Below the pieces are notes generated by a model. That model ran no database searches. It saw only the letters and a list, made by a program, of their open reading frames with translations, and was not told where the DNA came from. Made by a program: the position numbers and the translations under genes. This document shows positions 14,784 through 30,821 of a stretch of DNA of 64,000 nucleotides, one piece after another (position 1 is the stretch's first letter; every line of letters begins with the position of its first letter). The DNA is taken from positions 124,001 through 188,000 of the forward strand of contig NZ_JASNWF010000022.1 of the NCBI RefSeq assembly GCF_030283205.1, in the 5' to 3' direction. The DNA is from Actinomadura opuntiae. Lineage in GTDB: Bacteria; Actinomycetota; Actinomycetes; Streptosporangiales; Streptosporangiaceae.

Positions 14784-14885
14784 GTCGAGACCTGGGCCTA
14801 CGTGTATCCGCTGAGCCGATAAGGGGAACTCGCCGAGTCGGCGACTTTATGCCCGAGCAGGTGCCATCGGCCGGATCGTCGCGTA

Positions 14886-15175: not shown

Positions 15176-15179
15176 GGCC

Positions 15180-15392: not shown

Positions 15393-15398
15393 GACACC

Positions 15399-15445
15399 CA
15401 TGAGGAGAAGCCCACGCCCGGATGGGGTGTGGGCTTTTCCTCATG
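15399..15445 (+). terminator. Strong bidirectional terminator
   Basis: AAGCCCACGCCC (15408-15419) pairs with GGGTGTGGGCTT across a short GATG-type loop and is followed by a T run. The outer arms CATGAGG and CCTCATG extend the stem. It ends the small membrane protein transcript. On the other strand it overlaps the stop of the DUF5919 remnant. Confidence 0.85.
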
Positions 15446-15653
15446 ACGACACCCGAGCCATGTCCCCCACGCGTTTGAAGCTATCTAGATACGTACTCGC
15501 CATATCACCTTCCTCCGCGCCCGGCAGGTGCAACACCGGTGCGTGGAAGGCGACAATGCCGAAAGCGTGCGGGTTGATCAGAAGAACGTCACCAGCACGG
15601 TAGATCGAGTTGTAGAGCACAGTGTCATGAAGCCGCACCTCTACGCCGTCCAC
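15441..15653 (-). pseudogene. C-terminal remnant of an HTH-DUF5919 regulator
   Basis: The fragment reads DGVEVRLHDTVLYNSIYRAG, then LLINPHAFGI, then HAPVLHL, which align with the last 70 residues of the intact regulators at 22450-23169 and 25561-26307. The N-terminal HTH and the first half of the DUF5919 domain are missing. The break at about 15653 abuts a DUF2637 C-terminal fragment reading in the opposite direction, suggesting that recombination between two related elements deleted everything between. The stop codon lies in the terminator stem. Confidence 0.8.
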
Positions 15654-15654
15654 C

Positions 15655-15765
15655 TGGACGGTGACCCTGGCCGCCCCCTCTCTCAGCGCTACCTAGCCGA
15701 GAAGCACGACATCGACCGCCGCGGAGTCAAACAGATCATCACCGACACAGCACAAACCCACAGGC
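15655..15765 (+). pseudogene. C-terminal remnant of a DUF2637 protein
   Basis: GRPLSQRYLAEKHDIDRRGV and the residues after it match the HTH-like tail of the DUF2637 protein at 14178-14783 at nearly every position. All membrane segments are missing. It is fused at about 15655 to the reverse-strand DUF5919 remnant. It marks the left end of a second element unit, whose cargo (the two nuclease-NTPase genes) follows. Confidence 0.8.
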
Positions 15766-15857
15766 ATGAAACAACGGGGCTCCGGGAACAGCCGCACTAT
15801 GATGCCCCCGGGGTTCTCGCCTCAACTTCTGAGTCATTTAAAACACACGCATGATGT

Positions 15858-18179
15858 TCAACCGTCAATGTCATCGAAAATACTTGCTGACGTTGTTCCA
15901 TCGCTCGGAGAGCGAAGCACCTCAGACCTAAATTTGTGTACACCGTGAGATTTCATCCTATTCAAGTCTACCGCCTTGGCAAATCTATCCGCGATCTCGA
16001 TCTCACCAATATTTCTGAAGGCCGACGAGTATGCATGAAGTGCATCGTCCACACCGAAATCACCAGTGAGACCTTCTTCACCACGCCAAAACACATCGTC
16101 CGCCCAACCCTCCTCGAGCGCTTCTTCCAGACGAGGCAAGAGCAAATTGCGCACTAGCCAGAAAAGGCGTGACCGATCCTCGTCCTTAAGGAGCACATCC
16201 CACTCCCAGCATTCGCTCCGCACCCAGGCAGGATCGATAACTTTTACCGCAAGATCGGCCATGCGACGGATAGCCGCCTCCCGAACCTCATCAGAGATAA
16301 GGCCCGCCCGATGAAACCGAGCCAACACCCTAGGCTCCGGAACGAATTCACAGTACGGCTCGAATACGATTATCCGATCTAGTACCTGTGGATGGACGTT
16401 CAGGAAAGACTCCAGCATCTCATCGCTACAATCCCTCCAAAGATAGAAGAGAGCGTCATGCGTCCAACAGGACCCCCCCGGCCACTTCTCAAACATATTA
16501 GCCAGACGTTGGGAGACTTCATCATAAAGAAAAGCAGGTATCCGCAGTAGCGTACCCGGCCGCTCCTCCTCACCTGGAGTTAGACAATCTGTACGTTCAA
16601 GCAGAACGTTATCATCCATTCCGAAGAGAACATTAATCAGCAGATGGTGCTGTAGCGCCAGCCACGCCGCAAACCCCTCTCTCAAGGTTGGATGTTTGAA
16701 AGACCAGAGGGGTCGACCGTCACTCTGCCAGGCCTGCTTCACGAATGGCCCATCCAAGACCGCCAAGGCTCTATTTACCCCGGCAAGCGTTGAGCCAATC
16801 TGCTCAAGCAAGCTACGGCGAGCGGCATCAAGTTCGATTGGACCGCCAAGAGACCCAGATGACGATACATATATGAGGGTCAAAGCTGCCTGAGCATCCG
16901 CATTCAGTTGACTATAAACCTCACTCAAAAACTGGCCCGGATGAGCCATGAATAGCTCAAGTCCCCGCCGACTCACCTCTAGGTTACGAGTGAACGCCTG
17001 CAGCCCGAGACGTCGAGCGGCTTCTGGACGGAATGGCTCGGTGTCTGCAGCGACTTCAAGGTAGGGCTTCATGGCAGCTCGAACGTCACGAGGTTGATCA
17101 CCGGCTTTTAGGTGATTGTAAACTATCTGCCGACGCTCAGATTTACTAATATTCGCAACGTCAATCACAATCTGTTGTTCTTCGAGCAACGGATAGGCGT
17201 AGGTTTTCAACTGGGGGCGAGCTTCTCTGTAGATATAGTCGCGCGAAGTCAGAATGACCCTCGCGCCGGCATCGATCGCTGCCATGATGGCAGGCATATC
17301 CCGCGACCAGTCACGAGTCAGGTTATCTTCATGGCGAACAACACCAAACGCGTCATCAACCAGAAAGAGTTGTCCTCCCTCATGCGGGTTCCAATGGTTG
17401 ACGATGTCTCGGGATGTTCGCACCCTAACAACGATGCAATCCCATTCGTCAATAGCCCCCATCGCAAGCATAAGTGCATTTACAGACTTGCCAACGGCAG
17501 GCTCACCCAGTAATAGTACGAATCCGTGATTCCGGAGAGCCGTATTTGCTTTTCGAAAGGCGTCGGTGACAACGAACGTTGAAATCTGGCCTGCAGCTGA
17601 GGTCATCAGCATCTTGGCCTGCTCACATGCCCGATCTTCAAGAATCTGAGACAAATCACCCAAACCGTAGACACGAGGCACAAAGGTCCTAAGCGTGCGG
17701 TGTGAGGCAATGGTGTCACAGATCCACTGAGAGTCGAAAATAAACAGGTGCTCTACGCCACATTCTTTTATTCGTTTCCTGATTCGCCCCTCTGATACCC
17801 CGGACACGCGAGCGTTGGTCATAAGGACATATGTTGAGCACATCTCTTGTGTCACCAGCAGTCGAATCTTCTCAAATTCATTTTCTAGTGCGGAAAAAGA
17901 TAGCGTCGAACCTTCACTTTGACTGTGTTTGCATTGAATGACAAATGGTGCTGCCGGAATGTTTTCATTAGGCTCATCGTGTCGCGAATTATCCCATGAA
18001 CCATAAAAGACACCATCACGGCCACCGTCATTCGAGTCGGCAAACGATGCTACCGACTGGCCCCAGACATGGCGGAGAATTGCTACACATAGATCCTGAA
18101 AATCACGCCAGGTCAACGTATGCAGGGCAAAGTAAGGAGAACCCGGAGCGGTCGTTAGACCTGAAGTTGCTGACGCCAC
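15858..18179 (-). CDS. Mrr-like nuclease fused to nSTAND3-type NTPase (candidate defence protein)
   Basis: A 773-residue, comparatively AT-rich gene. Residues 1-175 look like a PD-(D/E)XK restriction-endonuclease domain: WRDFQDLCVAIL, GGRDGVFYG (52-60, metal-binding Asp) and VIQCKH (80-85, the QxK variant catalytic motif). A STAND NTPase of the nSTAND3 type follows: Walker A GEPAVGKS (225-232), Walker B LFLVDDAFG (271-279) and the sensor-like ARVILTSRDY. The C-terminal 400 residues are helical, probably a sensor region. Nuclease-STAND fusions act as anti-phage Avs-type systems (family knowledge); the role here is inferred. The GTG start follows AGAGAGG. It lies 171 bases downstream of a second such gene, apparently co-transcribed. 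Confidence 0.8.
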   Translation of the reverse strand: MASATSGLTTAPGSPYFALHTLTWRDFQDLCVAILRHVWGQSVASFADSNDGGRDGVFYGSWDNSRHDEPNENIPAAPFVIQCKHSQSEGSTLSFSALENEFEKIRLLVTQEMCSTYVLMTNARVSGVSEGRIRKRIKECGVEHLFIFDSQWICDTIASHRTLRTFVPRVYGLGDLSQILEDRACEQAKMLMTSAAGQISTFVVTDAFRKANTALRNHGFVLLLGEPAVGKSVNALMLAMGAIDEWDCIVVRVRTSRDIVNHWNPHEGGQLFLVDDAFGVVRHEDNLTRDWSRDMPAIMAAIDAGARVILTSRDYIYREARPQLKTYAYPLLEEQQIVIDVANISKSERRQIVYNHLKAGDQPRDVRAAMKPYLEVAADTEPFRPEAARRLGLQAFTRNLEVSRRGLELFMAHPGQFLSEVYSQLNADAQAALTLIYVSSSGSLGGPIELDAARRSLLEQIGSTLAGVNRALAVLDGPFVKQAWQSDGRPLWSFKHPTLREGFAAWLALQHHLLINVLFGMDDNVLLERTDCLTPGEEERPGTLLRIPAFLYDEVSQRLANMFEKWPGGSCWTHDALFYLWRDCSDEMLESFLNVHPQVLDRIIVFEPYCEFVPEPRVLARFHRAGLISDEVREAAIRRMADLAVKVIDPAWVRSECWEWDVLLKDEDRSRLFWLVRNLLLPRLEEALEEGWADDVFWRGEEGLTGDFGVDDALHAYSSAFRNIGEIEIADRFAKAVDLNRMKSHGVHKFRSEVLRSPSDGTTSASIFDDIDG

Positions 18180-18350
18180 CTGTTGCCTCTCTGTCTGTAT
18201 ACATGGATTATGTCCTTCAAAGAAGCGCGAGTGGACATTTCGCGCAGTGCCGGCTTAGTTACCTAGCTACGGCGCAGAGTCGACTAACGCACCTGCAAGT
18301 CATATGCGAACCAACAGTTTGGCCGAGTGGTTCTCGTCAAATTCGCCAGC

Positions 18351-21134
18351 TTACACGCTCCAGTTTTTATTTCCTGCTGCTGTATGTTGTCCGAAGAGTT
18401 CCTCCGTAGAGGGAGGCTGCGTAATAGCTGCGGCACGCAGCTCCGTGGAGATGCCACAGGCTCGTGCCCAGCTTCGTATAAACTTCCCGACGGAGAGCAG
18501 CGTACTTTCCGCCCAGTCAGCACCCAAGGCATCACGATGGGCTGCACCGAGTGAGCGCGGCGAAGCACCCGGGTTCCTCTCCAGACACTCAAAAGCCTTA
18601 CGCATGCCCCGCTGTCGTTCAACGATAGGCCGTAGGCGCTTCGGATCAATCTCACCATCTGCCACGAGCTGCAGTTCCGAGAGAACAATACGCTCGCCTG
18701 CGTCTCTTTCGATGACACCGAGCAGAGCCAGATCCCGAACGGCGTTCGCGAATCCATTCTTGGAAGGACGAGCGTGAGCGGAAGGATTGGATAGATGTAG
18801 CAACAGTTGCAATGAAGGGCCTGGATTCGCGCCCGGGAAGGCGCTTCGCACACGTACGGGAACAGTCCCACTTAGAAGTCTTACTGGTGGTTCGTCGTCG
18901 TGATCAACAAGCCGCACCATCCCGTCTCGGCGAAGTCGTACCAGGCCCGCGTATTCCATCCACTGGCAGAACGAGCGTGCGTAGGTGAACCAGCTATCGG
19001 ACTTCGCCTCCACGGTTGGAAACTCGGGTGGCAGCATAGAGGCGAATCTCTGAAGTGGCACGATTTCTTCTTGGTTCAGTAACTCAATGGCGAGCTTGTA
19101 CATTTTATGGCGGCGAAGCGCCTGTCCGACGCGGGCCCTAATGGCGCTCTCCGTGTCTGGAGCGGCCATTATCTCCGCCTCTATTACAACCTGATTCGGC
19201 TCGGAACTAAGAACTCCAAACAGACGCAGTTCACGGGCATAGTTATGCACCACGGTGGCCGTCGTGTTCAATTCTCGAGCGGCATCAGGAACGCTCACGC
19301 TCCCTTGAGCACCAACCACTACCCGAAGAAGGCGTCCCGCACCAAGCGGTGCATATCGGACGACATATGAGTCTTCAAGGGCGACACGGCCAGTGTTGAG
19401 AAAATCACGGAAAGTATCCCAATAGGTGTCGAGCCGATCTCCCACTTGCACAACAAGGCGCTGGTGAAGAAGACTCTCCAGCAGAGCGCTAGAAGCGACA
19501 GAATCCTCCAATTCGGCAATCGCTACTGGAGCACTTTGAGCGATCATACGCAACAGTGACTCCTCGCCAGGACTCAGCCGTGCAAGGTCACTTTCGAAAA
19601 GTCCTTGAACATTGAGGGCTTGTCGTGCAAGCTCGTCCTGGCTAATCCCGCTTCCAACTTCTGTCAGTACATGGCCGGCCAACTTCTTGAATAGCCATGG
19701 CAGCCCTTGGGAATACTCGCGTAGACGCTGACGCAGGTCCCGGTTTAGCTTTTTTCCCAACGACCTTTCGAGACGGCGAAGAAGAGTTTCGACTTCGCGA
19801 GGGCCGAACGGATTAAGAATTGCGACCGACGAAACATCTCTGATTTCATCACGAAAACGGTATGGATGCCCTTCCGTCCAGCCGACTAAATCTGTCTTCC
19901 ATGAGAAGCTGACGGTCAACGGAGCATTGAGTTCGCGTACCAAGAAGGCCAGGTCTCTGAACTCTCGCGTGAGCCCCAGGTCGCGGAAGACATTTTCGAA
20001 TTGATCAAAAGCAATGAAGAGAGGCTTTGCAGGTGTGCTCCATGATGCGCCTTTTAGTGTTTCAACGACACTTTGAAGTGTACTGAAAGCGGCATCGCTT
20101 GGCAGTTCGATAATCTTCCGGTCTACCGCCCTGCGAACGACACGCTCAATTGCGGCCGCGACAAAATCGGACCGTTCGGCCGTCCTAGTGTCGACGACGA
20201 GCGCTACGCCGCCAGCCTTCTCTATTTCTCGTTTCAACTGAAGCGCGAGCGAACTCTTACCCCAGCCCGACTTTGCGTTGATAACGATCGATCCACCGCT
20301 TGCCCGAGTCACGATTCTACCGATAAGGGACTGCGAAAGAGCTTTGCGACCGACAAAGAATTCCGGTGCAGCCGGAAGCTGATATTCGAAGTCGGAGGAA
20401 CTGCCCTGCACTTCAACGATATTCGGGGGCGACGGCACCCGTATTGGGACTACAGCTCTCTGGACACCGATAGACGTCACCGGCAGGCCCTGCGCCAACT
20501 CACGTTCAATCAAGCTGATAATTGGCGATGGAACGCTTCCGTTACGAGACCACACTAGCCATCTAAATGCACGGCGGGTTTCGGGATCCAACTCGCATGC
20601 AGCCATGACAATGCCATGCTCTGTGATGACAACTGTTGGATCGGATTTAATGGACGGACCGTCGTTCCAATTGGGCAGTATTTTGGCCGCTTCGAGCAGT
20701 CTACAGATGTCATACGAGCCTAGATACTGAAATCCTGGGAGTTTAACTCGCGCCGCCTCTGCCTGCTCCTTAGCCTGCGAGGTCAGCCGCGGGATCCCAA
20801 TAAAAAGTCCATGCATACGCTGATCATCAGCGCGAGCAAGCGCAAACTTTCCGAGGAATGACGTCAGGAGTGGAACACGTATATTCGAGCTATAGGATTT
20901 ACATTCACAGATAACCCGTTCGCCCGTAACCGTGTGGCGAGCCTCAACGTCGAGTTCTATACCTTCGCTCGTAACATCGAGGTTTTCTGCCCGTGGCTCG
21001 CCATAGCCCTGTGTTGCAAGCAACTGTGCAATAAACTTCTCGAAAAGATGACCGCGCTTGTTGGATATCTCCCCCGCCGACGGCCCTTCAGCCAGTACAA
21101 CGACAGCAGCGGTGTCCACAGCGATCTGTTCCAT
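18351..21134 (-). CDS. PD-(D/E)XK nuclease fused to P-loop STAND-type NTPase (candidate defence protein)
   Basis: A 927-residue gene with low GC for this genome. Residues 25-160 form an Mrr/restriction-endonuclease-like domain: KRGHLFEKFIAQLLATQGY, GIELDVEAR (58-66, catalytic acids) and VICECKSY (74-81, ExK). An ATPase follows: FFVGRKALSQSLIGRI (GR-type AAA/STAND start), Walker A NAKSGWGKSS (286-295) and Walker B PLFIAFDQFE (371-380). The C-terminal half is helical with winged-helix-like segments. Both nuclease and ATPase sites look intact. It is first in a two-gene unit with the nSTAND3 protein, preceded by an insertion sequence. Alternative: a nuclease regulated by another ATP-driven mechanism. 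Confidence 0.8.
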   Translation of the reverse strand: MEQIAVDTAAVVVLAEGPSAGEISNKRGHLFEKFIAQLLATQGYGEPRAENLDVTSEGIELDVEARHTVTGERVICECKSYSSNIRVPLLTSFLGKFALARADDQRMHGLFIGIPRLTSQAKEQAEAARVKLPGFQYLGSYDICRLLEAAKILPNWNDGPSIKSDPTVVITEHGIVMAACELDPETRRAFRWLVWSRNGSVPSPIISLIERELAQGLPVTSIGVQRAVVPIRVPSPPNIVEVQGSSSDFEYQLPAAPEFFVGRKALSQSLIGRIVTRASGGSIVINAKSGWGKSSLALQLKREIEKAGGVALVVDTRTAERSDFVAAAIERVVRRAVDRKIIELPSDAAFSTLQSVVETLKGASWSTPAKPLFIAFDQFENVFRDLGLTREFRDLAFLVRELNAPLTVSFSWKTDLVGWTEGHPYRFRDEIRDVSSVAILNPFGPREVETLLRRLERSLGKKLNRDLRQRLREYSQGLPWLFKKLAGHVLTEVGSGISQDELARQALNVQGLFESDLARLSPGEESLLRMIAQSAPVAIAELEDSVASSALLESLLHQRLVVQVGDRLDTYWDTFRDFLNTGRVALEDSYVVRYAPLGAGRLLRVVVGAQGSVSVPDAARELNTTATVVHNYARELRLFGVLSSEPNQVVIEAEIMAAPDTESAIRARVGQALRRHKMYKLAIELLNQEEIVPLQRFASMLPPEFPTVEAKSDSWFTYARSFCQWMEYAGLVRLRRDGMVRLVDHDDEPPVRLLSGTVPVRVRSAFPGANPGPSLQLLLHLSNPSAHARPSKNGFANAVRDLALLGVIERDAGERIVLSELQLVADGEIDPKRLRPIVERQRGMRKAFECLERNPGASPRSLGAAHRDALGADWAESTLLSVGKFIRSWARACGISTELRAAAITQPPSTEELFGQHTAAGNKNWSV

Positions 21135-21260
21135 TGCTTAAAGATACCTCAGCAGGCCAGCAGAGGCCGCTGCTTAGATGATTGCACTGCGGCTGCGAAT
21201 TTGGGACTGACCGTATATCGAGTCACCGCACGTATAAAACCGTTGGTCGCTCCTGCAACC

Positions 21261-22314
21261 ACTAACGACCTCGTGCATGGTTGTGGTGGTGGCCGGGTTC
21301 CTGATCGTTGATCATGGTCGGATGGTCCGGTCGGTGGCTCGTGCGGTGGTTGTGGGAATCGTCGGATCACCGGTCTGTCGCCGACAGTGATCGCCGAGTT
21401 GGTGGCGGAGGTCGGGCCCGTGTGGCAGGAGCGGCACCAAGCGGTGCTGGCCGCTCGTCCGCGGAGGCGCGCAGTGGGTGCTGGCGCGAAGTACAAGCTG
21501 CTGTTCGTGGACCGGCTGCTGGCCACGCTGATCCATCTGCGGCACGGGGTGACCCACGATGTGCTGGGCTGCTGGTTCGGCGTCAGCCGATCCACCATCA
21601 CCCGAGCCATCGCCGAGGTCCGGCCGCTGCTGGCCGACCGTGGCTGCACGGTCGAGCCGGGAATCTGGTTGCGCACGCTGGCCGAGGTGATCGAGTACCT
21701 GGGCGCCAGCGGGCAAACCGCGATCATTGATGCCACCGAGGTCAGGGTTCGCCGACCGGCGGCCAAACGGCCGGACCGCAACGTGTTCGTCTCCGGCAAG
21801 AACAAGCAGAACGCAATCAAAGCCATGGTGATCACCGACGCAGACGGTCACCTGCTCTTCTGCGGACAAGCCGAGCCCGGAAGTTGCGCCGACATCACCC
21901 AGGCCCGCCGGTCGGGACTGGTCGAGCTACTGGCCACCGGTCCGCCAGTGCAGATCCTGGCCGACGCCGGCTACCAGGGCCTGGGTGCCGAGACCGCCGG
22001 TCAGGTAGTGACACCGCCGCACCGCAAATTCCGCAAGAACGCCCCGGCCTGGTACGAAGAGCTCCACGCCGCCCAGCGCCACGCCCATTCCGTCCGCCGC
22101 ATCCGGGTCGAACACGGCATCGCCCACCTGAAGAACTGGCGCTCTCTCGCCCGCCATCACGGCCGCCGCGAACACCTCGCCGACATAGCCAAAGCCGCTG
22201 CAGCACTGCTGTCCCATCAACAGGCCGCAACGCACCCGGCCGAACTCCAGGCATAACTTCGGTCGCTCGGCGAATACCCGACACGCCACCACAACCATGC
22301 ACGAGGTCGTTAGT
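21261..22314 (+). mobile_element. IS5-family (IS112-like) insertion sequence
   Basis: Bounded by 29-base perfect inverted repeats at 21261-21289 and 22286-22314, each beginning ACTAACGACCTC from its outer end. It encloses one transposase gene. No clear target duplication is seen next to the repeats (flanks ACC and AGT). The left end is 127 bases from the start of the nuclease-NTPase gene at 21134, so the element lies in or next to the promoter of that unit. Confidence 0.85.
21387..22256 (+). CDS. IS5-family transposase (DDE_Tnp_4 type)
   Basis: A 289-residue transposase with a helix-turn-helix segment (DVLGCWFGVSRSTITRAIAEV) and a DDE catalytic core: TAIIDATEVRVRRP (first Asp), VQILADAGYQG (second Asp) and RVEHGIAHLKNW (Glu). 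These spacings fit the IS5/IS112 group. The GTG start at 21387 may be late, because the family's usual RITGLSPT lead-in is visible in frame upstream without a start codon. All catalytic residues are present, so the element may be active. Confidence 0.88.
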   Translation: MIAELVAEVGPVWQERHQAVLAARPRRRAVGAGAKYKLLFVDRLLATLIHLRHGVTHDVLGCWFGVSRSTITRAIAEVRPLLADRGCTVEPGIWLRTLAEVIEYLGASGQTAIIDATEVRVRRPAAKRPDRNVFVSGKNKQNAIKAMVITDADGHLLFCGQAEPGSCADITQARRSGLVELLATGPPVQILADAGYQGLGAETAGQVVTPPHRKFRKNAPAWYEELHAAQRHAHSVRRIRVEHGIAHLKNWRSLARHHGRREHLADIAKAAAALLSHQQAATHPAELQA

Positions 22315-22449
22315 AGTGGATCTGGCCCTAGGTTCCCGTGGATAGTCAGGAACTGGTTACCCACAGTCCGTGATGGACAAGCGGTGTAGAGGCAGATCGC
22401 AGGCTGCGGCCTTTGCGGGAGCTGTGTCCTCCTGATACGGCGTTGGTAC

Positions 22450-23169
22450 TCACGTCCCGAGCCAGACGCGGTCGAAGCTGTGTTGGTAGGTGGCGGCCAT
22501 GTCGTTGGGCTGGGTGGTGCGGAGGTGGAGCACGGGGGCGTGGGATGCGGGGATGCCGTAGGCGTGGGGGTTGATCAGGAGGTCGTCGTCGGATCGGTAG
22601 ATGGAGTTGTAGAGGACTGTGTCGTGTAGGCGGATCTCTACATTGTCGAGGTCGCGTAGGGGTTCGTAGAGGACTAGGGCGTTGCGGATCTTGGCGGCTA
22701 GGGAGTCGCCTACGCCTTCGTCTGCGCCTCGTTCGGAGATGCGGGGGCCGTCTGGGTTGCCGAGGAGGATGCGGACGGTGACGCCGTCTCGGGCCTTGTC
22801 GGCGATGGTTCGTATGACGCCTTGGTCTTCGGCGAGGAAGAGGCCGGCGTAGGCGAGGATGCCGATCTCGTGGCGTGCGCTGGCGAAGTGGTGTTGCCAG
22901 ACGGCTCGGGGGACGGCCCAGCGGTGCGGGTAGGTGGCGAGGATCTGGGCGCCCGGTGGTTCGGGGAGCGGGCGCGGTGCGGAGAGCTGGGGCCACAGGT
23001 CGTCTGCGGTGTGGTCCAGGAGGGCACAGAGGGTCGCTCGGTGGCGGGGGTAGGGGATGCGGCCGGACAGCCAGCGGTGGACGGTCTTGGGGTCTACGTC
23101 GAGACGCTTGGCCACGTCGTCTTTGGTGAGCTGGGCCTCTTCGAGGGCTCGCCGCAACAGGTCGTTCAC
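22450..23169 (-). CDS. HTH (XRE-like) regulator with DUF5919 domain
   Basis: A 239-residue protein. Residues 1-50 form an XRE-like HTH (LTKDDVAKRLDVDPKTVHRW). Residues 80-239 match DUF5919, a domain with PLD-like overtones: TYPHRWAVPRAVWQHHF, EIGILAYAGLFL, VTVRILLGNPDG, EIRLHDTVLYNSIYR, LLINPHAYG. The duplicated HxKx4D catalytic motif of true phospholipase D is not present, so a sensing role is more likely than catalysis. Its promoter carries a tandem GGGACGTC repeat. It is divergent from the hypothetical gene at 23344. Paralogue at 25561-26307; remnants at 15441-15653 and 34236-34730. Confidence 0.82.
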   Translation of the reverse strand: MNDLLRRALEEAQLTKDDVAKRLDVDPKTVHRWLSGRIPYPRHRATLCALLDHTADDLWPQLSAPRPLPEPPGAQILATYPHRWAVPRAVWQHHFASARHEIGILAYAGLFLAEDQGVIRTIADKARDGVTVRILLGNPDGPRISERGADEGVGDSLAAKIRNALVLYEPLRDLDNVEIRLHDTVLYNSIYRSDDDLLINPHAYGIPASHAPVLHLRTTQPNDMAATYQHSFDRVWLGT

Positions 23170-23208
23170 CGGACCTCCCGAGATGCAAGGTAGGACTGAC
23201 GCTAACAG

Positions 23209-23232
23209 AAGACGTCCCTAGACGTCCCTAGT
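23209..23232. promoter_or_regulatory. Tandem GGGACGTC operator-like repeat
   Basis: On the - strand this reads AGGGACGTCT twice in direct tandem with a 10-base period, so both copies face the same side of the helix. It lies between the divergent DUF5919 regulator gene and the gene at 23344. Related repeats lie at 24457-24476, 26325-26344 and 29610-29630. Confidence 0.6.
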
Positions 23233-23343
23233 TGCCGGTGGAGAGGTCCCGGCCGGCCAACGAGGCTTCTGGACACGCCCGAGGTGCCGCACCTGCGGTT
23301 TCTCAGCGGTCAAGTCCCCAAGCAACCTCGTTGAGGAGGCCCC

Positions 23344-23706
23344 ATGTCCTTCGACCGGCCCCGTGAGACCGATGCCGAGCCGACGTCCTTCTCTGGTCTG
23401 AGCGTGGCCGAGGCGCGGTTGGCCGCGCTCGGCGCTCACCTGCGTGCGCATCGCCTTGTCGTCGAGTTGACCTCGGCGGGACTGGCAGTGCGCAATCCGG
23501 ACGCGCCCGGTTGCTGCGATGAGAACCCCGTCCTGTCCGACAAGATCACGTGTCGGCCCTTCGATCGGGACGGCGGTCACCTCTGGTTCTTCGACTCGTC
23601 GGGGCACCCGATCACCGAAGCCGAGCGCATCGTCGACGCGGTCGTGTGGATCAAGGGCAGGCTCGCCGACCGGGACAGCCTTCCCGCGGTGGAGGGCACG
23701 CTCTGA
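23344..23706 (+). CDS. Conserved hypothetical protein of the integrative element
   Basis: A 120-residue soluble protein with a mixed alpha/beta pattern (VAEARLAALGAHLRAHRLVVELTSAGLAVRN, GHLWFFDSSGHPI). No known catalytic motif; the CC pair in APGCCDENP is unlikely to bind metal alone. A clear GAGGAGG site precedes the ATG. Divergent from the DUF5919 regulator, with the GGGACGTC repeat between. Such genes recur in actinomycete elements beside HTH regulators; function unknown. Confidence 0.65.
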   Translation: MSFDRPRETDAEPTSFSGLSVAEARLAALGAHLRAHRLVVELTSAGLAVRNPDAPGCCDENPVLSDKITCRPFDRDGGHLWFFDSSGHPITEAERIVDAVVWIKGRLADRDSLPAVEGTL

Positions 23707-23945
23707 TGGCGCGGGCTGCTGGACGGCATCGGCGTACCTGCTCGCCGCCACAACCCTCGCGAAGGACCGTCAGCCCTCGTCCGCAGGCGGACGCGGCGGG
23801 GCGGTGGGTTGTTGTCTCCCCTGCGAGCATGCCCACGCACCACCCTGCCTCCCGCCCGCCTACGGCGAGTACCGAAGGCGGTGGCGGGAAGCATCGGCGT
23901 GGGCTTGCTCGGCGCATCCTCGGCGCCTTCGTGGATCTGGGGTGA
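23706..23945 (+). CDS. Doubtful small basic protein
   Basis: An ATG overlapping the stop of the previous gene (TGATG) opens a 79-codon frame rich in Arg, Pro and Ser with no domain. Codon third positions are not strongly GC-biased, and another frame is equally open, so this may be non-coding. If it is not a gene, the 310 bases between 23706 and the GntR gene hold only a terminator hairpin. Confidence 0.25.
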   Translation: MARAAGRHRRTCSPPQPSRRTVSPRPQADAAGRWVVVSPASMPTHHPASRPPTASTEGGGGKHRRGLARRILGAFVDLG

Positions 23946-23960
23946 GAGTCCGAGGTCAGG

Positions 23961-23993
23961 TGAGGCCCAGAGTGGTCGCCGCTCTGGGCCTCA
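23961..23993 (+). terminator. Rho-independent-like hairpin
   Basis: Perfect 12-base arms TGAGGCCCAGAG (23961-23972) and CTCTGGGCCTCA (23982-23993) around a 9-base loop, with no T tract. It lies 23 bases before the GntR start and separates the hypothetical gene(s) from the regulator. Confidence 0.7.
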
Positions 23994-24015
23994 TACGTGT
24001 GTGGTGGGGTGCACG

Positions 24016-24468
24016 GTGACACGTGCCTCGGGTGCCGCGTACCGAAGAATCGCCGAGGTATTGCGGGCGCGTATCGCGGACGGGTCCTATCCCGCTGGCG
24101 GGCGGTTGCCTGGAGAGCATGAGCTGAGCAGAGAGTTCGCCGTGGCCCGTGACACAGTACGGCGTGCGCTGCGGCTGCTCCAGGACGAGGGGCTGATCAG
24201 GGTCGTGACGGGCCTGGGCAGGTTCGTGCCGTCCGTTCCCGCTGACAACGTCGGGCCGACGTACGAGCGCATCGCGGCTGACCTTAGGGGGCTGATCGAG
24301 AGCGGCTCGTTGCCGGTCGGCAGTCGCTTGCCGAGCGAGGCGAGGATCTGCGAGCGCTACGGCGTCGCGCGGTTCACCGCGAGGCGGGCTTTAGAGCGGT
24401 TGGAGGCCGCTGGTCTGGTGGAGTGCGTTCACGGTCGGGGACGGTTCGTCCTGCCAAGACGTCCCTAG
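24016..24468 (+). CDS. GntR-type regulator with two tandem winged-helix domains
   Basis: A 150-residue protein built from two GntR-type winged-helix units with no effector domain. Unit 1 runs from about residue 5 to 75 (IAEVLRARIADGSYPAGGRL, FAVARDTVRRALRLL). Unit 2 runs from about 80 to 148 (IAADLRGLIESGSLPVGSRL, YGVARFTARRALERLEA). The duplication makes one chain resemble a pre-formed dimer. In pSAM2-type AICEs the GntR protein KorSA represses element functions, so a similar role is likely. Start GTG at 24016. A GGGACGTC site overlaps its 3' end and the next promoter. Confidence 0.8.
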   Translation: MTRASGAAYRRIAEVLRARIADGSYPAGGRLPGEHELSREFAVARDTVRRALRLLQDEGLIRVVTGLGRFVPSVPADNVGPTYERIAADLRGLIESGSLPVGSRLPSEARICERYGVARFTARRALERLEAAGLVECVHGRGRFVLPRRP

Positions 24469-24476
24469 ATGGTCCC
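24457..24476. promoter_or_regulatory. GGGACGTC operator-like site upstream of the HD gene
   Basis: AAGACGTCCCTAG lies across the GntR stop codon, followed after two bases by GGTCCC, a half match in the same orientation. On the - strand this reads GGGACC then GGGACGTC at an 11-base period. The HD-domain gene starts about 45 bases downstream. Confidence 0.5.
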
Positions 24477-24521
24477 GCGGCGTCCGTGGATGTCCAGTGA
24501 CCTGCCCGTAGCGTCAGGGAC

Positions 24522-25199
24522 ATGGACAGCACCGCCGAGTGGGCACGCGAAATCGCACGTCATCACCTGGAGAGCGCGTTGCCGCGCCGCTGGGCGCACA
24601 CGCAAGGTGTCGCTCGCCAGGCTAGGACGCTCGCGCCCCTACTCGGCGACCGTGCTGGCCTGCTTGAGGCCGCCGCTTGGCTGCACGACCTCGGGTACGC
24701 GCCTGACCTCGTCGTGACTGGGTTCCATCCCCTCGACGGCGCGCGCTTCCTGCGGGACGCTCACTACGCGGACGAGCATCTGTGTCGGCTCGTGGCTCAT
24801 CACTCATGCGCGGTTGTGGAGGCTCGGGAACGCGGGCTCGTCGACGAGCTGACGAGCGAGTTCGGGACCGAGCCTCCGGAACTGACGGATTCACTCATCT
24901 ACTGCGACATGACCACGAGTCCGGACGGTGAGGAGTTGGCGGTAGAGGATCGGCTTTCGGAGATCCTGTCCCGGTACGGTGACGGCCATCTCGTCACCCG
25001 CTCCATCACCACGTCGTCCCCGCACATCATCGGCGCCGTTCACCGCGTTCGGGACGAGCTGATGTCTGCACCGATGAGCCGGTCAGGTGATGACCGGCTG
25101 TTGCCTATTCTCCAGGTAGTGGCCGATGCGGAGCTTCATCGATCGGTCCATTTGCCTGTCTGCGGCCTTGTCGGCGGGGATCCAGAGGACTTCGCTTGA
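24522..25199 (+). CDS. HD-domain phosphohydrolase-like protein
   Basis: A 225-residue protein with the metal-binding signature of the HD superfamily: RRWAHTQGVARQAR (first His), AAAWLHDLGYAPDL (the HD pair), RLVAHHSCAV (further His) and an Asp-containing YCDMTTSPDG. Family members hydrolyse nucleotides or phosphodiesters; the substrate cannot be told. The last 39 codons lie antisense over the Nudix gene's end (117-base convergent overlap) and may be a read-through extension. ATG at 24522. It belongs to the same element module as GntR and Nudix. Confidence 0.75.
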   Translation: MDSTAEWAREIARHHLESALPRRWAHTQGVARQARTLAPLLGDRAGLLEAAAWLHDLGYAPDLVVTGFHPLDGARFLRDAHYADEHLCRLVAHHSCAVVEARERGLVDELTSEFGTEPPELTDSLIYCDMTTSPDGEELAVEDRLSEILSRYGDGHLVTRSITTSSPHIIGAVHRVRDELMSAPMSRSGDDRLLPILQVVADAELHRSVHLPVCGLVGGDPEDFA

Positions 25200-25559
25200 C
25201 TCGTCGCTTGGGCGGGGTTCGCCGCCTATGGGGCGCGCTGTGAGCAGGATCGAGAACTCCTGGCGGACCTCGTCGTTGCTCGTGTAGTGGATCAGGTGCT
25301 TGGGGTCTGAGTAGATGCCGACGAGGCCGATGATCTCGCAGTCGACGCCGGTCTCTTCTTTGGTTTCGCGGATCGCGGCCTGTGCGACGGATTCGCCCAG
25401 GTCTATCGCGCCTCCCGGTACCGCCCAGTTGTCGTTGTCGGTGCGGCGAATCATGAGGATCTCACCGTTGTCGTTGGCAACGACGACGTTGACGGACGGG
25501 ACGAGGCTGTTGGCCTCGGGGGCGTTGGGGTCGTCGTAGTAGTCGATCCTGCGGCCCAA
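25083..25559 (-). CDS. Nudix hydrolase (Pif-like element protein)
   Basis: A 158-residue Nudix hydrolase with a complete Nudix box: GAIDLGESVAQAAIRETKEE followed by TGVD (G5xE7xREuxEExGu), preceded by VNVVVANDNGEILMIRRTDN. Substrates of the superfamily are nucleoside diphosphates linked to another moiety. In pSAM2 the Nudix protein Pif prevents redundant transfer between donors; a similar role is plausible given the Tra, GntR and integrase context. A TTG start at 25559 next to the stop of the DUF5919 gene suggests coupling. Its 3' end overlaps the HD gene tail to tail. Confidence 0.8.
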   Translation of the reverse strand: MGRRIDYYDDPNAPEANSLVPSVNVVVANDNGEILMIRRTDNDNWAVPGGAIDLGESVAQAAIRETKEETGVDCEIIGLVGIYSDPKHLIHYTSNDEVRQEFSILLTARPIGGEPRPSDESSEVLWIPADKAADRQMDRSMKLRIGHYLENRQQPVIT

Positions 25560-25560
25560 G

Positions 25561-26307
25561 TCAGTCCCCCGGTGGTAGTGGCTTGGCGGCTTCCCAGACG
25601 CGCTCGAAGCTCTCCATGTAGGTCGTGACGACCTCGCCACCGGGGAGCCGGCGAAGATGCCAGAACGGGGCATCTGAGGCGCCTATGCCGTAGACGTGCG
25701 TATTGACGAACATCTGGTCATCGGCGAAGTAGATCGAGTTGTAGAGCACCGTGCCATGCAACCGGAACTCGACGTTCTCCAGGACGCGCAGTTTCTTGTA
25801 CAGCACGATCACGTATTGGATCTTGCTGGCAAGGGTGTCGCCGATGCCCTCGTCCTCGCCACGTTCGGCGACCTGTGGAGATTCCGGGTCTCCGAGGAGG
25901 ATGCGGACGCGAACACCGGCCTTGGCCTTGTCGGCGAGGATGCGTTGAGCGCCGGTGTCCTCGGCGAGGAAGACGCCGCTGTAGACCAGGATACCGATCT
26001 CGTTTTGCGCTTCGGCGAACAGACGTCCCCACGCGTCCCTTGGGACGGCCCAGCGATGCGGATAGAGGGTGACAAGCTCGCTGTCGGACGCCGAGGTGAT
26101 CTGTTCCTTCGTCAGAGCCTCGGGCCACAGGTATGTCTCATCCACGCCGAGACGAGAAGCCACTGCGTAACGGTGTCGCCGGTACGGAGTGCGGTCCTGC
26201 GTGATCCACCGTTCGACGGTCTTGGGATCGACCTCGATCGCCTCGGCGAGCGCGGCGAGGGTCATGCCCCGTTGAAGCAGCGCGGCGCGTAGGCGTTCGT
26301 TGGGCAA
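25561..26307 (-). CDS. Second HTH-DUF5919 regulator
   Basis: A 248-residue paralogue of the protein at 22450-23169. It has an N-terminal HTH (MTLAALAEAIEVDPKTVERW), then DUF5919 (YPHRWAVPRDAWGRLFAEA, EIGILVYSGVFLAEDTG, VRVRILLGDPESPQ, EFRLHGTVLYNSIYFADD). The catalytic-looking His of RLHDTVLY in the paralogue is conserved, but the Asp is Gly here (RLHGTVLY). Together with the Nudix gene just downstream it forms a leftward unit. Its promoter carries a 10-base-phased GGGACG repeat, so auto- or cross-regulation is possible. Confidence 0.82.
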   Translation of the reverse strand: MPNERLRAALLQRGMTLAALAEAIEVDPKTVERWITQDRTPYRRHRYAVASRLGVDETYLWPEALTKEQITSASDSELVTLYPHRWAVPRDAWGRLFAEAQNEIGILVYSGVFLAEDTGAQRILADKAKAGVRVRILLGDPESPQVAERGEDEGIGDTLASKIQYVIVLYKKLRVLENVEFRLHGTVLYNSIYFADDQMFVNTHVYGIGASDAPFWHLRRLPGGEVVTTYMESFERVWEAAKPLPPGD

Positions 26308-26324
26308 GGCACCTGTCCGAATCC

Positions 26325-26700: not shown

Positions 26701-26704
26701 CCCG

Positions 26705-26851: not shown

Positions 26852-26862
26852 GGGGTGAGCGC

Positions 26863-27051: not shown

Positions 27052-27079
27052 CGTCCCGCTGGAAGGGAGTGATGCCCCA

Positions 27080-27424
27080 GTGCCCGACATCCCTCAGCAC
27101 GTCAAGGTCGACCTTCAGGGGGTCCGTGCCCGCAACCTCGCCGCCCGTGAAATCGTCTCTGCCCTGTCGGAGGCGATGCCGTCCATCGCCGATCTGTGGC
27201 TGCGCATCAATTCCGCGCTCGCCGATTCCCCCGCCCTCGTCTCCGAGGTGTCGCGCCTGAGAGCCGAGCTGGTGAGGCTGCGCCGTGACCGCGCGAACCT
27301 GGCAGCCGCGGGACGCGCCACCCTCAAGGCCGAACGTGACGCCGAACCTGACCCGCTGTACTACCTGCGCGACGAGTTGCGCGCCCAGGGACACCTTCCG
27401 CCGGACGCGTGGGGGCGTTCATGA
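27080..27424 (+). CDS. Coiled-coil hypothetical protein upstream of Tra
   Basis: A 114-residue soluble protein with a heptad-like central part (LVSEVSRLRAELVRLRRDRANLAAAGRATLKAERDA), likely a coiled coil. GTG start at 27080 after GGAAGGGAG. Its stop overlaps the tra start as ATGA, so the two are translationally coupled. It may be an accessory subunit of the transfer ATPase. Confidence 0.65.
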   Translation: MPDIPQHVKVDLQGVRARNLAAREIVSALSEAMPSIADLWLRINSALADSPALVSEVSRLRAELVRLRRDRANLAAAGRATLKAERDAEPDPLYYLRDELRAQGHLPPDAWGRS

Positions 27425-29220
27425 GCCGGACGCGGCAGATGCGGCGGCACGCACAGAAGATGCGCCGCAACGGGCTCCAACCGATGGTCATCATCGACCG
27501 TGAAGACCAGTTCCCCGATATCGCCGCTGTGCTGGTGGCTCGGGCGCTGTGGCGGTACCGGTCCGAACTCGCTCCCCTGTACCTGGTGACCGCGCTCGCC
27601 GTCTCGGGCCTCGTCCTCCATGCGGCTCGCCCGCACTGGTGGCCGTACCTCCTCGTCCTCGCGACGGTGGCCGCGTGGGTGCTGGCGATGTTCAGTGACC
27701 GGTTCGGGCTCGCCCTGCGCGTGGAACGGCTGTACGGCGCGGCCGTGGTCATGGGGGCCGGTGGGTGGCTGGCTGCGGTGACCGCGCTCGGTATCGCATT
27801 CTCGCCGTTGCCCCAGGTGCTCGCCGTGGGTGGCTTCGCGCTTGCCATGCCGTGGTGGGTGCATCGGCGGCGGCGCGCCAAGGTGCGGGTCGATCGGCAG
27901 ATCGCCGCATGGCCTGAGATCGCGCAGTCGATCGGGCTCGCCGGCTCCCGTGCACAGTCCGCCGTGGTGGACGTGTGGGGATGGCGTGCGCGGTTCGCGC
28001 TCGCCCGTGGCCAGACCATCCAGGACGTCACCGCGAAAGTGCCCGCGATCGAATCGGCGCTCGGGACGTTCCGCGGCGCGGTGCGCGTCTTCCCCACACG
28101 CGACGACAAGGCCAACCGGTTCGAACTCCGGGTGCTCAACACCGACCCGCACGCCGATGCGATTCCGTGGCCCGGGCCGTCCGTCTCGTCCATTACCGAG
28201 CCGATCGACCTCGGACCGTTCGAGGACGCGACGAGTGCGCGTGTTCTGCTGCTGCGTCGTCACGGGCTCATTGGAGGCGTGGCCGGCTCGGGAAAGAGCG
28301 GCGGAATCAACGTCCTGATGGGCAACCTCAGCGCGTGCCGCGACGTGGTCATCTGGGCCATCGACCTCAAGCGCGGCATGGAGTTGCAGCCGTGGGCGTC
28401 CTGTATCGATCGGCTCGCCACCACGCCGGAGCAAGCCCGCGCCATGCTGCGCGATGCCGTGACGATTCTTGAGGCGCGCGCCGAGTGGCTCACGGCGAAC
28501 GGGCGGCGCGTCTGGGATCCGACGCCGGAGTTGCCCGCGCTCGTCATCGTCGTGGACGAGTACGCCGAACTCGCCGATGACGCACCGGACGCGGCGAGCG
28601 ACACGGACTCGATCGCGCGCCGTGGGCGTGCGGTTGCCGTGACGCTCATCGCGGCCACGCAGCGCCCCACGCAGAAGGCCATGGGCAAGGGCGCCGTCCG
28701 CTCGCAGATGGACGTCCGGGTGAGTTTCCGCGTCCGCGAGCGCAAAGACGTCGACCTCATCCTTGGGCAAGGGATGCTCAACGCCGGATGGCACGCCCAC
28801 ACCCTCAACGCGCCCGGCAAGTTCCTGCTGTCCGCACCCGAACACGACACGCCCCGACGAGGCCGCGCCTACCTGCTCACAGATGACGCGGTGAGCGAGG
28901 CGGCACAGCGGCATGAGGCTCTACGTCCCGTCCTGGACGAGGTCTCGCGGCGCGCGCTGGACGAGGCCAGTACGCCGCTTCTGCGGCCCGTCTCAGCCGC
29001 CTCCGTACCGTTGAGGCCGTCCAGGGAAGACCGCGCCGAGAGCGTCCTGCGGGAAGCCCTGGACGGCGCGCCGGACGAGGGGCTTCCGATCGCGCACCTA
29101 CTCATGATCACCGAGATGAGCCGGCCCACCCTCTACCGGCGCCTCAACGAGCTGGTGAAGACCGGCCGCGCCGTCCAGGTCGGACGAGGCCGCTACAAGG
29201 CGTCCGACCACACTCCGTGA
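27421..29220 (+). CDS. FtsK/SpoIIIE-like conjugal transfer ATPase (TraB/TraSA type)
   Basis: A 599-residue DNA translocase. The N-terminal part has membrane helices (LYLVTALAVSGLVLHAA, YLLVLATVAAWVLAMF, then a pair around 110-135). A RecA-like motor follows: Walker A GGVAGSGKSGG, Walker B LVIVVDEYAEL, and the FtsK-type ATQRPTQKAMGKGAVRSQMD. The C-terminus is a winged helix (ISHLLMITEMSRPTLYRRL-like; here IAHLLMITEMSRPTLYRRL) that probably recognises the transfer site, as the gamma-like domain does in TraB. Streptomycete Tra proteins of this type move double-stranded DNA between hyphae on their own. This defines the island as a conjugative element. Confidence 0.9.
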   Translation: MSRTRQMRRHAQKMRRNGLQPMVIIDREDQFPDIAAVLVARALWRYRSELAPLYLVTALAVSGLVLHAARPHWWPYLLVLATVAAWVLAMFSDRFGLALRVERLYGAAVVMGAGGWLAAVTALGIAFSPLPQVLAVGGFALAMPWWVHRRRRAKVRVDRQIAAWPEIAQSIGLAGSRAQSAVVDVWGWRARFALARGQTIQDVTAKVPAIESALGTFRGAVRVFPTRDDKANRFELRVLNTDPHADAIPWPGPSVSSITEPIDLGPFEDATSARVLLLRRHGLIGGVAGSGKSGGINVLMGNLSACRDVVIWAIDLKRGMELQPWASCIDRLATTPEQARAMLRDAVTILEARAEWLTANGRRVWDPTPELPALVIVVDEYAELADDAPDAASDTDSIARRGRAVAVTLIAATQRPTQKAMGKGAVRSQMDVRVSFRVRERKDVDLILGQGMLNAGWHAHTLNAPGKFLLSAPEHDTPRRGRAYLLTDDAVSEAAQRHEALRPVLDEVSRRALDEASTPLLRPVSAASVPLRPSREDRAESVLREALDGAPDEGLPIAHLLMITEMSRPTLYRRLNELVKTGRAVQVGRGRYKASDHTP

Positions 29221-29675: not shown

Positions 29676-30821
29676 GTGGCGAAGATCCTCATCGGCAAGT
29701 ACGAGGGCACGATCTACGAGGAGGGCGACGGGTACACCGGCGCTCTCGCACTCGGGACCGGCCCCGACGGCAAACGCAAGCGGCTCAAGAGGAAGGGGCG
29801 GACGAAAGCACAGGTCAAAGAGAAGCTCGTCAAGGCCGTCGACGATCTAGAGAAGGGCATCAGGGAGGAGCGGAACCACACAGTCGAGAAGGCCGTGAAC
29901 GCCCTGCTCACCCACCTCGCCAAGCAAGACAAGAGCGAGGCGACAATGAAGACCTATCGCGGTCTCGCCGATCATCACATCATCGGCAGAATCGGCAAGG
30001 TGAAGCTCACCGACCTCACGGCCGACGACGTTGAGGCGTGGCTAGACGACTGCGCCGAGAGCATGACCACGCAGACGCTCAAGATCGTCCATGGTCTTCT
30101 ACGGAGGTCGATCCGGCTCGCAGAGCGGCGCGACAAGGTCGGGCGCAATGTGGCCCTCTTGGTGGACACCCCCAGAGGCAAGCGGCCTTCAAGGCGGTCG
30201 CGCTCGCTCTCCCTGGCACAGGCGACCACCCTTCTCCAGGTAGCACAGGATCCACGGCACCGACTCGGCGCGTACGTCATCCTCGCGATTGTCTCGGGTC
30301 TCCGTACGGAGGAACTCCGAGCGCTCACGTGGGCTGACGTGGATCTCAAAGAGAAGGTCGTCTACGTTCTCCGTTCCGACCGGGACGGGGGTGACACCAA
30401 GACCAAGAAGAGCCGCCGGGGCATCGCCGTGGCGGACATGGCCGTTGACGCGCTCACGGCGCTGCGCAAGCGGCAGGCCGCAGAGAAACTCGCAGCGGGC
30501 GACCTGTGGCAGGGACACAACCTCGTCTTCTGCCGAGAGAACGGGGCGCCCTACACGAGTGACGACGTCCTACGCCGCTTCCAGAGCCTCACACGCACTG
30601 CCGGCCTCGGCTCGAACTGGGTGCCGCGCGAGTTGCGGCACACGTTCGTGTCCATCATGAGTGACCAGGGCGTTGCTCTGGAGAAGATCAGCGACCTTGT
30701 GGGGCACTCCGGCACCCACACCACGCAGACCGTCTACCGGCATGAACTCCGGCCCGTCATCACCACGGGCGCCGAGAAGATGAACGCCATCTTCAACGGA
30801 GACAAGTCCAGGTCAGCCTAG
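29676..30821 (+). CDS. int: Tyrosine-family site-specific integrase
   Basis: A 381-residue phage/AICE-type integrase. N-terminal arm-binding strands (KILIGKYEGTIYEEGDGYTG, about 1-50) are followed by a SAM-like core-binding domain (about 60-150). The catalytic domain has Arg in GLRTEELRALTW, Lys near SRRGIAVAD, HxxR in PRELRHTFVS, His in LVGHSGTHTT, and the nucleophile Tyr in QTVYRHE: a full R-K-H-R-H-Y set. GTG at 29676 follows GAGGAGGGA. It is the last gene of the intact element, next to a candidate att core. Confidence 0.93.
   Translation: MAKILIGKYEGTIYEEGDGYTGALALGTGPDGKRKRLKRKGRTKAQVKEKLVKAVDDLEKGIREERNHTVEKAVNALLTHLAKQDKSEATMKTYRGLADHHIIGRIGKVKLTDLTADDVEAWLDDCAESMTTQTLKIVHGLLRRSIRLAERRDKVGRNVALLVDTPRGKRPSRRSRSLSLAQATTLLQVAQDPRHRLGAYVILAIVSGLRTEELRALTWADVDLKEKVVYVLRSDRDGGDTKTKKSRRGIAVADMAVDALTALRKRQAAEKLAAGDLWQGHNLVFCRENGAPYTSDDVLRRFQSLTRTAGLGSNWVPRELRHTFVSIMSDQGVALEKISDLVGHSGTHTTQTVYRHELRPVITTGAEKMNAIFNGDKSRSA

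What the first reader, a model, noticed from the sequence alone, without database searches (positions are those of the whole stretch)
15858..21134. Two adjacent nuclease-STAND NTPase fusions: a candidate two-gene anti-phage system
Two leftward genes, apparently one unit, each join an N-terminal PD-(D/E)XK/Mrr-like nuclease to a P-loop NTPase with intact Walker motifs. In the 773-aa protein these are GGRDG and IQCKH, then GEPAVGKS and LFLVDD. In the 927-aa protein they are ELDVE and ICECKS, then NAKSGWGKS and LFIAFDQFE. The nuclease cores and NTPase types differ between the two, so they are not simple duplicates. Both are AT-richer than their neighbours and sit in an integrative element. Single nuclease-STAND proteins are known (Avs-type); a pair of different fusions acting together would be unusual. 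The pairing as one system is my inference.
Basis: partly seen in the sequence, partly recalled or inferred. Interest (0 to 1): 0.85.

Follow-up and report, generated by a model that had tools for sequence, protein, structure and literature searches.

The report
Two separate STAND nuclease genes, adjacent
Two neighbouring genes on a mobile DNA element each encode a DNA-cutting domain joined to an immune-type molecular switch, but close relatives of each occur without the other, so they look like two separate, probably anti-phage, genes that ended up side by side rather than one new two-part system.

Summary
P1 (15858-18179, -, 773 aa) is an Mrr-type nuclease + nSTAND3 NTPase. P2 (18351-21134, -, 927 aa) is an Mrr-type nuclease + nSTAND1 NTPase, with a C-terminal half that looks like winged helices. 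Active-site and Walker residues are conserved in the relatives aligned, and the two are not duplicates. Both are AT-rich cargo of a ~17.1-kb integrative element flanked by CCGCATTAG repeats; a same-genus genome has the site empty.

The inferred pairing is not supported. A same-genus genome carries P1 at 88% identity and no P2 was found in it. Ten genomic P2 relatives (41-76% identical) have no P1 nearby (0 of 10). None of 12 P1-bearing genomes or records has P2. Of 59 plasmids matching P1 and 14 matching P2, none is shared. DNA shared with P1's closest relative stops at the start codon.

Best reading: two independent single-gene STAND-nuclease effectors, probably anti-phage. P1 is a divergent relative of PADLOC candidate PDC-S73. 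P2 belongs to an actinobacterial mobile-element family with no good PADLOC or NCBIfam match. Defence is inferred, not shown. Interest is moderate to low.

The parts
15858..18179 (-). P1: 773-aa protein. PD-(D/E)XK/Mrr-type nuclease (~20-165), nSTAND3 NTPase (202-358), C-terminal region predicted mainly helical at low confidence, tail S-x-F-x-D-[IV]-D
18351..21134 (-). P2: 927-aa protein. Mrr_cat nuclease (27-132), predicted small beta-rich domain (~167-221), STAND/AAA NTPase (~247-520), C-terminal region that looks like tandem winged helices
18180..18350 (-). 171-bp gap between P2 and P1. DNA shared with the closest P1 relative begins at 18181, 2 bp before the P1 start codon
13792..30907 (.). 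~17.1-kb integrative element that carries both genes; direct repeats CCGCATTAG at 13792 and 30899 are probable att cores
29676..30821 (+). tyrosine integrase of the element
   Evidence: PF00589, 2.7e-24
27409..29220 (+). FtsK/SpoIIIE-type DNA translocase of the element
   Evidence: PF01580, 3.1e-12
21258..22317 (.). insertion sequence (DDE_Tnp_4 transposase 21387-22256) with 32-nt inverted repeats, 123 bp upstream of the P2 start
22450..26307 (.). element genes next to the cargo: HTH with a weak, below-cut-off PLD/DUF5919 match (22450-23169 - and 25561-26307 -), GntR-type (23809-24468 +), HD (24522-25199 +), NUDIX (25083-25673 -)

Best explanation
P1 and P2 are two independent single-gene STAND-nuclease effectors, brought together as cargo of one actinobacterial integrative element. 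Inferred mechanism for each: the protein rests in an inactive state; the C-terminal region (mainly helical in P1, winged-helix-like in P2) recognises a trigger from an invading phage or other mobile element; NTP binding by the STAND module drives assembly; the N-terminal PD-(D/E)XK domains are brought together and cut DNA, destroying the invader or aborting the infected cell. Shown here: the domains, the conserved active-site and Walker residues, purifying selection on P1, mobile-element residence and the separate distribution. Inferred: activation, oligomerisation, DNA as substrate, phage as target.
For: Domains and residues. Nuclease fold: the P1 model matches AF1548 (1y88; Z 10.4, rmsd 2.4, 112 aligned) and MspJI (Z 8.8, rmsd 4.4, 147 aligned) over its N-terminus; the P2 profile also hits 1y88 (E 0.0022). 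NTPase fold: P2 residues 247-581 match the STAND-like ATPase 2qen (Z 15.3, rmsd 7.5, 304 aligned) and 243-583 the NRC4 resistosome (Z 12.8, rmsd 8.0, 284 aligned). Separate lives: 0 of 10 P2 loci with P1 in the flanks; 0 of 12 P1-bearing genomes or records with P2; in 394 class genomes P1-profile matches in 4 and P2-profile matches in 2, both only in the window's genome; no plasmid shared. Selection on P1 against its solo relative: dN 0.067, dS 0.488. Defence-type neighbours of P1 relatives: Abi_C, AbiEi/AbiEii, OLD/AriA-like, SIR2.
Against: No functional data exist for P1 or P2 in anything I saw. P2 relatives show mobile-element genes rather than a clear defence island nearby, so defence is weaker for P2. 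The P1 model is poor (mean pLDDT 49.7), so its NTPase fold rests on sequence and its sensor region is barely tested. The pair is co-oriented with a short gap and no terminator-like site between, so co-expression here is possible. The genome scan for P2 relied on two peptide patterns, so pairs among more distant relatives could be missed. G051 is a draft of about 670 contigs (98% complete), so absence of P2 there is not absolute.
Confidence: 0.68

Rival explanations
1. P1 and P2 work together as a recently assembled two-protein system (for example mixed STAND oligomers, or one triggering the other), specific to this element.
For: Adjacent, co-oriented, 171 bp apart, similar low GC, no terminator-like site between. 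P1 relatives elsewhere have close or overlapping companion genes: OLD/AriA-like, PLD-like by eye, CoiA, AbiE, so a replaceable partner is conceivable.
Against: The same-genus P1 at 88% identity has no P2 found in its genome. The P2 at 76% identity has no P1 found in its genome. No pair was found in any record searched other than the window's genome. The two proteins share no detectable sequence similarity.
Confidence: 0.07
2. The proteins serve the mobile element in competition with other plasmids or elements (exclusion or anti-plasmid restriction) rather than phage defence.
For: Relatives of both are found on plasmids or integrative elements; matches in the phage collection are 1 (P1, partial) and 0 (P2) of 50,697 records. 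Four of 10 P2 loci have genes related to this element's backbone close by.
Against: Defence genes of many kinds ride on such elements (general knowledge), and P1 relatives also lie in 3 viral contigs and beside abortive-infection genes.
Confidence: 0.2
3. Both are degraded or silent passengers with no present function.
For: An insertion sequence lies 123 bp upstream of P2 and may have cut its promoter; relics of a second element lie next door.
Against: Both ORFs are intact with the catalytic residues, and P1 shows purifying selection.
Confidence: 0.05

Closest known systems
PDC-S73 (PADLOC candidate, model PDLC05079)
   Same: P1 matches over nuclease + NTPase (E 5.9e-25, protein 19-360); a P1 relative on a Piscirickettsia plasmid matches nearly full length (protein 2-701, model 4-690 of 752, E 2.8e-41)
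   Different: P1's own C-terminal half does not match the model; no paper in the held library names the candidate. That PDC-S means a single-gene candidate is recalled
Avs/AVAST proteins (effector-STAND-sensor)
   Same: Same plan: N-terminal effector, central STAND, C-terminal sensor. The P1 model has Avs4 (8dgf) among its top structural rows (Z 10.1, but rmsd 22.0 over 215 aligned). Avs5 proteins carry nSTAND3 (PMC12931631, three passages read)
   Different: No Avs-named model appeared among matches of P1 or P2 at E <= 1 in PADLOC; the Avs5 effector is Sir2-like, not a nuclease; P2's C-terminus looks winged-helix rather than repeats
nSTAND1 conflict proteins (Kaur et al. 2021, PMC8195603, passages read)
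   Same: P2's NTPase is above the nSTAND1 cut-off; nSTAND1 is named there, and restriction-endonuclease-fold effectors are listed among the exchangeable effectors of these systems. Mrr-like effectors in related systems are in Kaur et al. 2020 (PMC7159879, passages read)
   Different: No named family for the actinobacterial Mrr-nSTAND1-winged-helix proteins was found in PADLOC (P2 and 3 relatives) or NCBIfam (P2 only)
Two-gene nSTAND2 operon (Kaur et al. 2021)
   Same: A mobile two-gene operon in which both genes encode STAND modules has been predicted before
   Different: There one STAND is eroded and fused to GT4 or HEPN effectors; here both NTPases are intact, both effectors are nucleases, and the pair was not found again

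Membership tests
nSTAND3 (PF20720) | P1 score above the curated cut-off | tested here: met
   132.9 vs 27.2 bits
nSTAND1 (PF20703) | P2 score above the curated cut-off | tested here: met
   35.1 vs 27.1 bits
Mrr_cat / PD-(D/E)XK nuclease (PF04471) | both proteins above cut-off, with the catalytic acid and (E/Q)xK conserved | tested here: met
   22.7 and 40.1 vs 21 bits; residues invariant in 7 of 7 and 11 of 11 rows
PDC-S73 | full-length match to the candidate's model | tested here: inconclusive
   P1 matches only model positions 6-333 of 752; a relative matches 4-690
Avs (AVAST types 1-5) | match to a named Avs model | tested here: inconclusive
   none among matches at E <= 1; that the library holds such models is recalled, not checked
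Avs (AVAST types 1-5) | C-terminal repeat sensor that binds a conserved phage protein | not testable with these tools
   P1 model too weak; ligand binding needs experiment
nSTAND2 two-gene operon | one STAND with eroded NTP-binding motifs fused to GT4/HEPN | tested here: not met
   Walker A and B motifs intact and conserved in both; description from PMC8195603 passages
a new two-gene P1+P2 system | the two genes recur together in independent genomes | tested here: not met
   0 of 10 P2 loci, 0 of 12 P1-bearing genomes or records, no plasmid shared between 59 and 14
anti-phage defence system | lowers phage plating, dependent on nuclease and NTPase residues | not testable with these tools
   needs experiment

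The most novel reading that the evidence does not exclude
In this element two unlike STAND nucleases have recently been joined into a working pair, for instance a mixed oligomer whose two different nuclease domains act on the same DNA, with P1 as a general module that takes different partners in different bacteria (an OLD/AriA-like protein on a Roseibium plasmid and in viral contigs, P2 here).
Probability: 0.06. Interest if true: 0.75.

Novelty: new member of a known kind. Interest (0 to 1): 0.33.

Why it matters
It removes a probable false lead (a two-gene system) and leaves two testable single-gene candidates. The P2 family (nuclease, STAND switch, probable winged helices) has no good match in the defence library used and sits on actinobacterial integrative elements; winged helices in the sensor position would suggest DNA rather than protein sensing. 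The repeated association of P1-type proteins with an OLD/AriA-like gene elsewhere may be a better candidate for a real two-gene unit than the pair in this window.

Tried and rejected
Pairing as one system: tested from both sides and rejected for lack of recurrence. Duplication of one gene into two: rejected. A tRNA att site: rejected, the only tRNA found in the window is at 57811. A prophage origin of the element was not tested (PHROGs was not searched, and only 8 element ORFs besides P1 and P2 went to Pfam). Rfam was not searched.

Structural work: P1 could be folded only with 4 rows, because the rule of that tool admits only the window and loci from certain searches; the model is weak (pLDDT 49.7), so nothing is claimed for its C-terminal half beyond 'mainly helical'. 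P2's nuclease and C-terminal half are barely covered by the fold comparison (the rows span 240-582); the winged-helix reading rests on the predicted helix and strand pattern and weak profile matches to Csa3 (E 0.32-0.34). Searching solved structures with each single protein gave nothing useful, nor did the P1 profile. In the phage collection there was 1 partial P1 match and no P2 match. In viral contigs P1 alone found none, its alignment found 3, and P2 found 1 (L040, not examined further).

Limits of the co-occurrence test: of the 10 P2 loci, 3 are short on one or both sides (L019 2.6 kb upstream, L026 0.4 kb upstream, L027 on a 6-kb contig); one search covers those genomes as wholes. G105, one of the 10, has a distant partial P1-like match (E 2.5e-35, positions 75-482) outside the P2 flanks; I count it as not a P1 orthologue. 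In some searches only 2 first-look candidates per genome were scored. Of the 12 P1-bearing genomes or records, 8 are plasmids or viral contigs, not whole cells, and G088, G349 and G429 carry only distant P1-like matches. Of the plasmid records, 16 of 59 cover at least 80% of P1 and 1 of 14 at least 80% of P2 in one place; many of the 59 match the nuclease part alone. Literature: searches in the held open-access library; apart from passages of three papers I saw listings and starts of abstracts only. These do not show that the families are unpublished.

Full report
WHAT IS THERE. Pfam gives P1 an nSTAND3 NTPase (1.1e-38) after an Mrr_cat nuclease (22.7 bits, cut-off 21), and P2 an Mrr_cat nuclease (4.6e-10) followed by nSTAND1 (1.5e-8) and a sub-threshold AAA_16. 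The key residues are invariant in the relatives aligned: 7 of 7 rows for P1 and 11 of 11 for P2. The two proteins show no significant similarity to each other (best BLASTP E 0.11; hhalign probability 0.9%).

STRUCTURE. P2 was predicted with 11 sequences (mean pLDDT 77.2, pTM 0.42). Its NTPase region matches ORC/Cdc6-type and STAND-like ATPases (1w5t Z 15.6, rmsd 9.0, 311 aligned; 2qen Z 15.3, rmsd 7.5, 304 aligned; NRC4 resistosome Z 12.8, rmsd 8.0, 284 aligned); many AAA+ proteins score nearly as well. The P2 profile hits AF1548 (a PD-(D/E)XK-type protein; that label is recalled) at E 0.0022 over 33-152, and weakly the winged helix of Csa3 at 594-652 (E 0.32-0.34). P1 was predicted with only 4 sequences and is weak overall (mean pLDDT 49.7), but its N-terminus matches AF1548 (Z 10.4, rmsd 2.4, 112 aligned) and MspJI (Z 8.8, rmsd 4.4, 147 aligned), and Avs4 appears among the top rows (Z 10.1, but rmsd 22.0 over 215 residues). 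So the nuclease assignment holds for both, while the P1 NTPase rests on sequence.

THE ELEMENT. In the same-genus genome G015 the window's left flank (up to 13803) and right flank (from 36175) meet directly, so about 22.4 kb is absent there. Inside that stretch the nonamer CCGCATTAG occurs at 13792 and 30899 and nowhere else in the window on either strand. The second copy lies just past the integrase gene (29676-30821), and the empty site contains GCATTAG. I read 13792-30907 as one integrated element of about 17.1 kb, followed by the relic of a second one (30.9-36.2 kb), because several stretches of 13.85-14.47 kb repeat, degenerated, about 17.1 kb further on. Genes of the element that I tested are an integrase, an FtsK-type protein, GntR-type, HD, NUDIX and two HTH genes with a weak, below-cut-off PLD/DUF5919 match. 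An insertion sequence with 32-nt inverted repeats lies 123 bp upstream of P2. P1 and P2 are AT-rich (GC 0.519 and 0.548, against 0.664 for the rest of the element).

DO THE TWO BELONG TOGETHER? From the P1 side: a same-genus genome (G051, a draft of about 670 contigs, 98% complete) has P1 at 88% protein identity, and no P2 was found in it by the single protein or by profile. DNA similarity between the two P1 genes (86.6%) begins 2 bp before the start codon and ends 15 bp after the stop. In G051 the gene has different neighbours, including an Abi_C protein downstream. Twelve genomes or records that carry P1 or P1-like genes were searched with the P2 profile and none has it (4 whole genomes, 5 plasmids, 3 viral contigs); G141, which carries P2, was recovered as the positive control. 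From the P2 side: a pattern-based scan of the species-genome collection returned 10 loci (41-76% identity); none has P1 in the DNA held around it, and searches of those 10 genomes with the P1 profile found no orthologue and one distant partial match, in G105; G051 and a Streptomyces plasmid were recovered as positive controls. In an even sample of 394 genomes of the class, P1-profile matches occur in 4 and P2-profile matches in 2; only the window's own genome has both. On plasmids, 59 records match P1 (16 over at least 80% of it) and 14 match P2 (1 over at least 80%), with no record in common. Within what was searched, the pair is seen once.

WHAT EACH IS. P1 relatives occur on plasmids of Actinobacteria, Proteobacteria and a few other bacteria and in 3 viral contigs. 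Their neighbours vary: AbiEi/AbiEii just upstream in Bradyrhizobium, a SIR2 gene with an ATP-binding neighbour in Piscirickettsia, CoiA and a large AAA_16 protein in Rhizobium, an overlapping OLD-like gene in Roseibium, and a 628-aa gene 49 bp upstream in L041, L042 and L043, of which the L041 copy was scanned and is AriA/OLD-like. P1's best named match is PDC-S73. P1 against its G051 relative has dN 0.067 and dS 0.488, so it is under purifying selection. P2's plasmid relatives are annotated as restriction endonuclease, ATP-binding protein, AAA family ATPase, hypothetical protein, or not at all; no PADLOC model matches P2 or three relatives well (best E 0.0033 for P2 and 0.00028 for a relative), and no NCBIfam model matches P2. 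Four of 10 P2 loci (L019, L020, L023, L024) lie near genes related to this element's own NUDIX, HTH, GntR or FtsK genes, so P2 is repeated cargo of this type of element; a fifth, L022, has only an integrase match.

HOW IT PROBABLY WORKS. By analogy with STAND immune proteins, a C-terminal sensor, an NTP-driven assembly step and an N-terminal nuclease are expected; the architecture and intact motifs fit. The trigger, the assembly and the DNA target are inferred. The defence role is likelier for P1 (defence-type neighbours, PADLOC candidate) than for P2 (mobile-element neighbours).

COMPARISON WITH WHAT IS PUBLISHED. Avs5 proteins carry nSTAND3 with a Sir2-like effector (PMC12931631, three passages read). 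Restriction-endonuclease-fold effectors, Mrr-like ones included, are among those of NTP-dependent conflict systems (PMC7159879, passages read). nSTAND1 and a two-gene operon in which both genes are STANDs (nSTAND2, one eroded) were described by Kaur et al. 2021 (PMC8195603, passages read). The present pair is none of these in detail, but each single protein is of a known kind.

VERDICT.

Noticed in passing
P1 C-terminus, window 15861-15884 (-), and relatives in L006, L011, L012, L016, L017, L018, L041, L042, L043: The tail S-x-F-x-D-[IV]-D closes 10 of 10 P1-family proteins aligned (L042 and L043 are closely alike), although the region before it is poorly conserved; it could be a docking or targeting peptide.
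   Followed up: partly
L041:2684-6926, L042:6053-10295, L043:3650-7892, L017:3905-8247: P1-type genes preceded by an OLD/AriA-like ATPase gene (family scanned for L041 and L017 only), 49 bp upstream in three viral contigs and overlapping on a Roseibium plasmid: a recurring two-gene arrangement.
   Followed up: partly
L006:8117-8986: In Streptomyces sp. NBC_01591 the P1 relative overlaps by 4 bp a 289-aa ORF that looks PLD-like by eye but has no Pfam or PADLOC match.
   Followed up: partly
window 21258-22317: Insertion sequence with 32-nt inverted repeats, 123 bp upstream of P2; it may have replaced the P2 promoter.
   Followed up: no
window 30908-36174: Relic of a second, related element in tandem, with an AT-rich patch at 32-34 kb encoding a 302-aa protein and a probable methyltransferase (named by eye).
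   Followed up: no
window 15569, 22566, 25698, 34296: Four copies of a 46-nt stretch from the 3' part of the HTH/PLD-like genes; two lie in intact genes and two look like remnants: repeated recombination at this site.
   Followed up: no
G000:C12:166537-168024 (L005, L013): A second, distant P1-like gene (24% identity) in the same genome, with one TAG inside the matched stretch.
   Followed up: no
L055, L056, L057: Three other same-genus genomes hold about 3.5, 3.8 and 0.8 kb between the same two flanks; the shortest contains pieces resembling this element's ends and integrase end: an integration hotspot.
   Followed up: partly
L022:3811-9747 and L026:3428-7045: Large ORFs beside P2 relatives look like TrwC-type relaxases by eye; not tested.
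   Followed up: no
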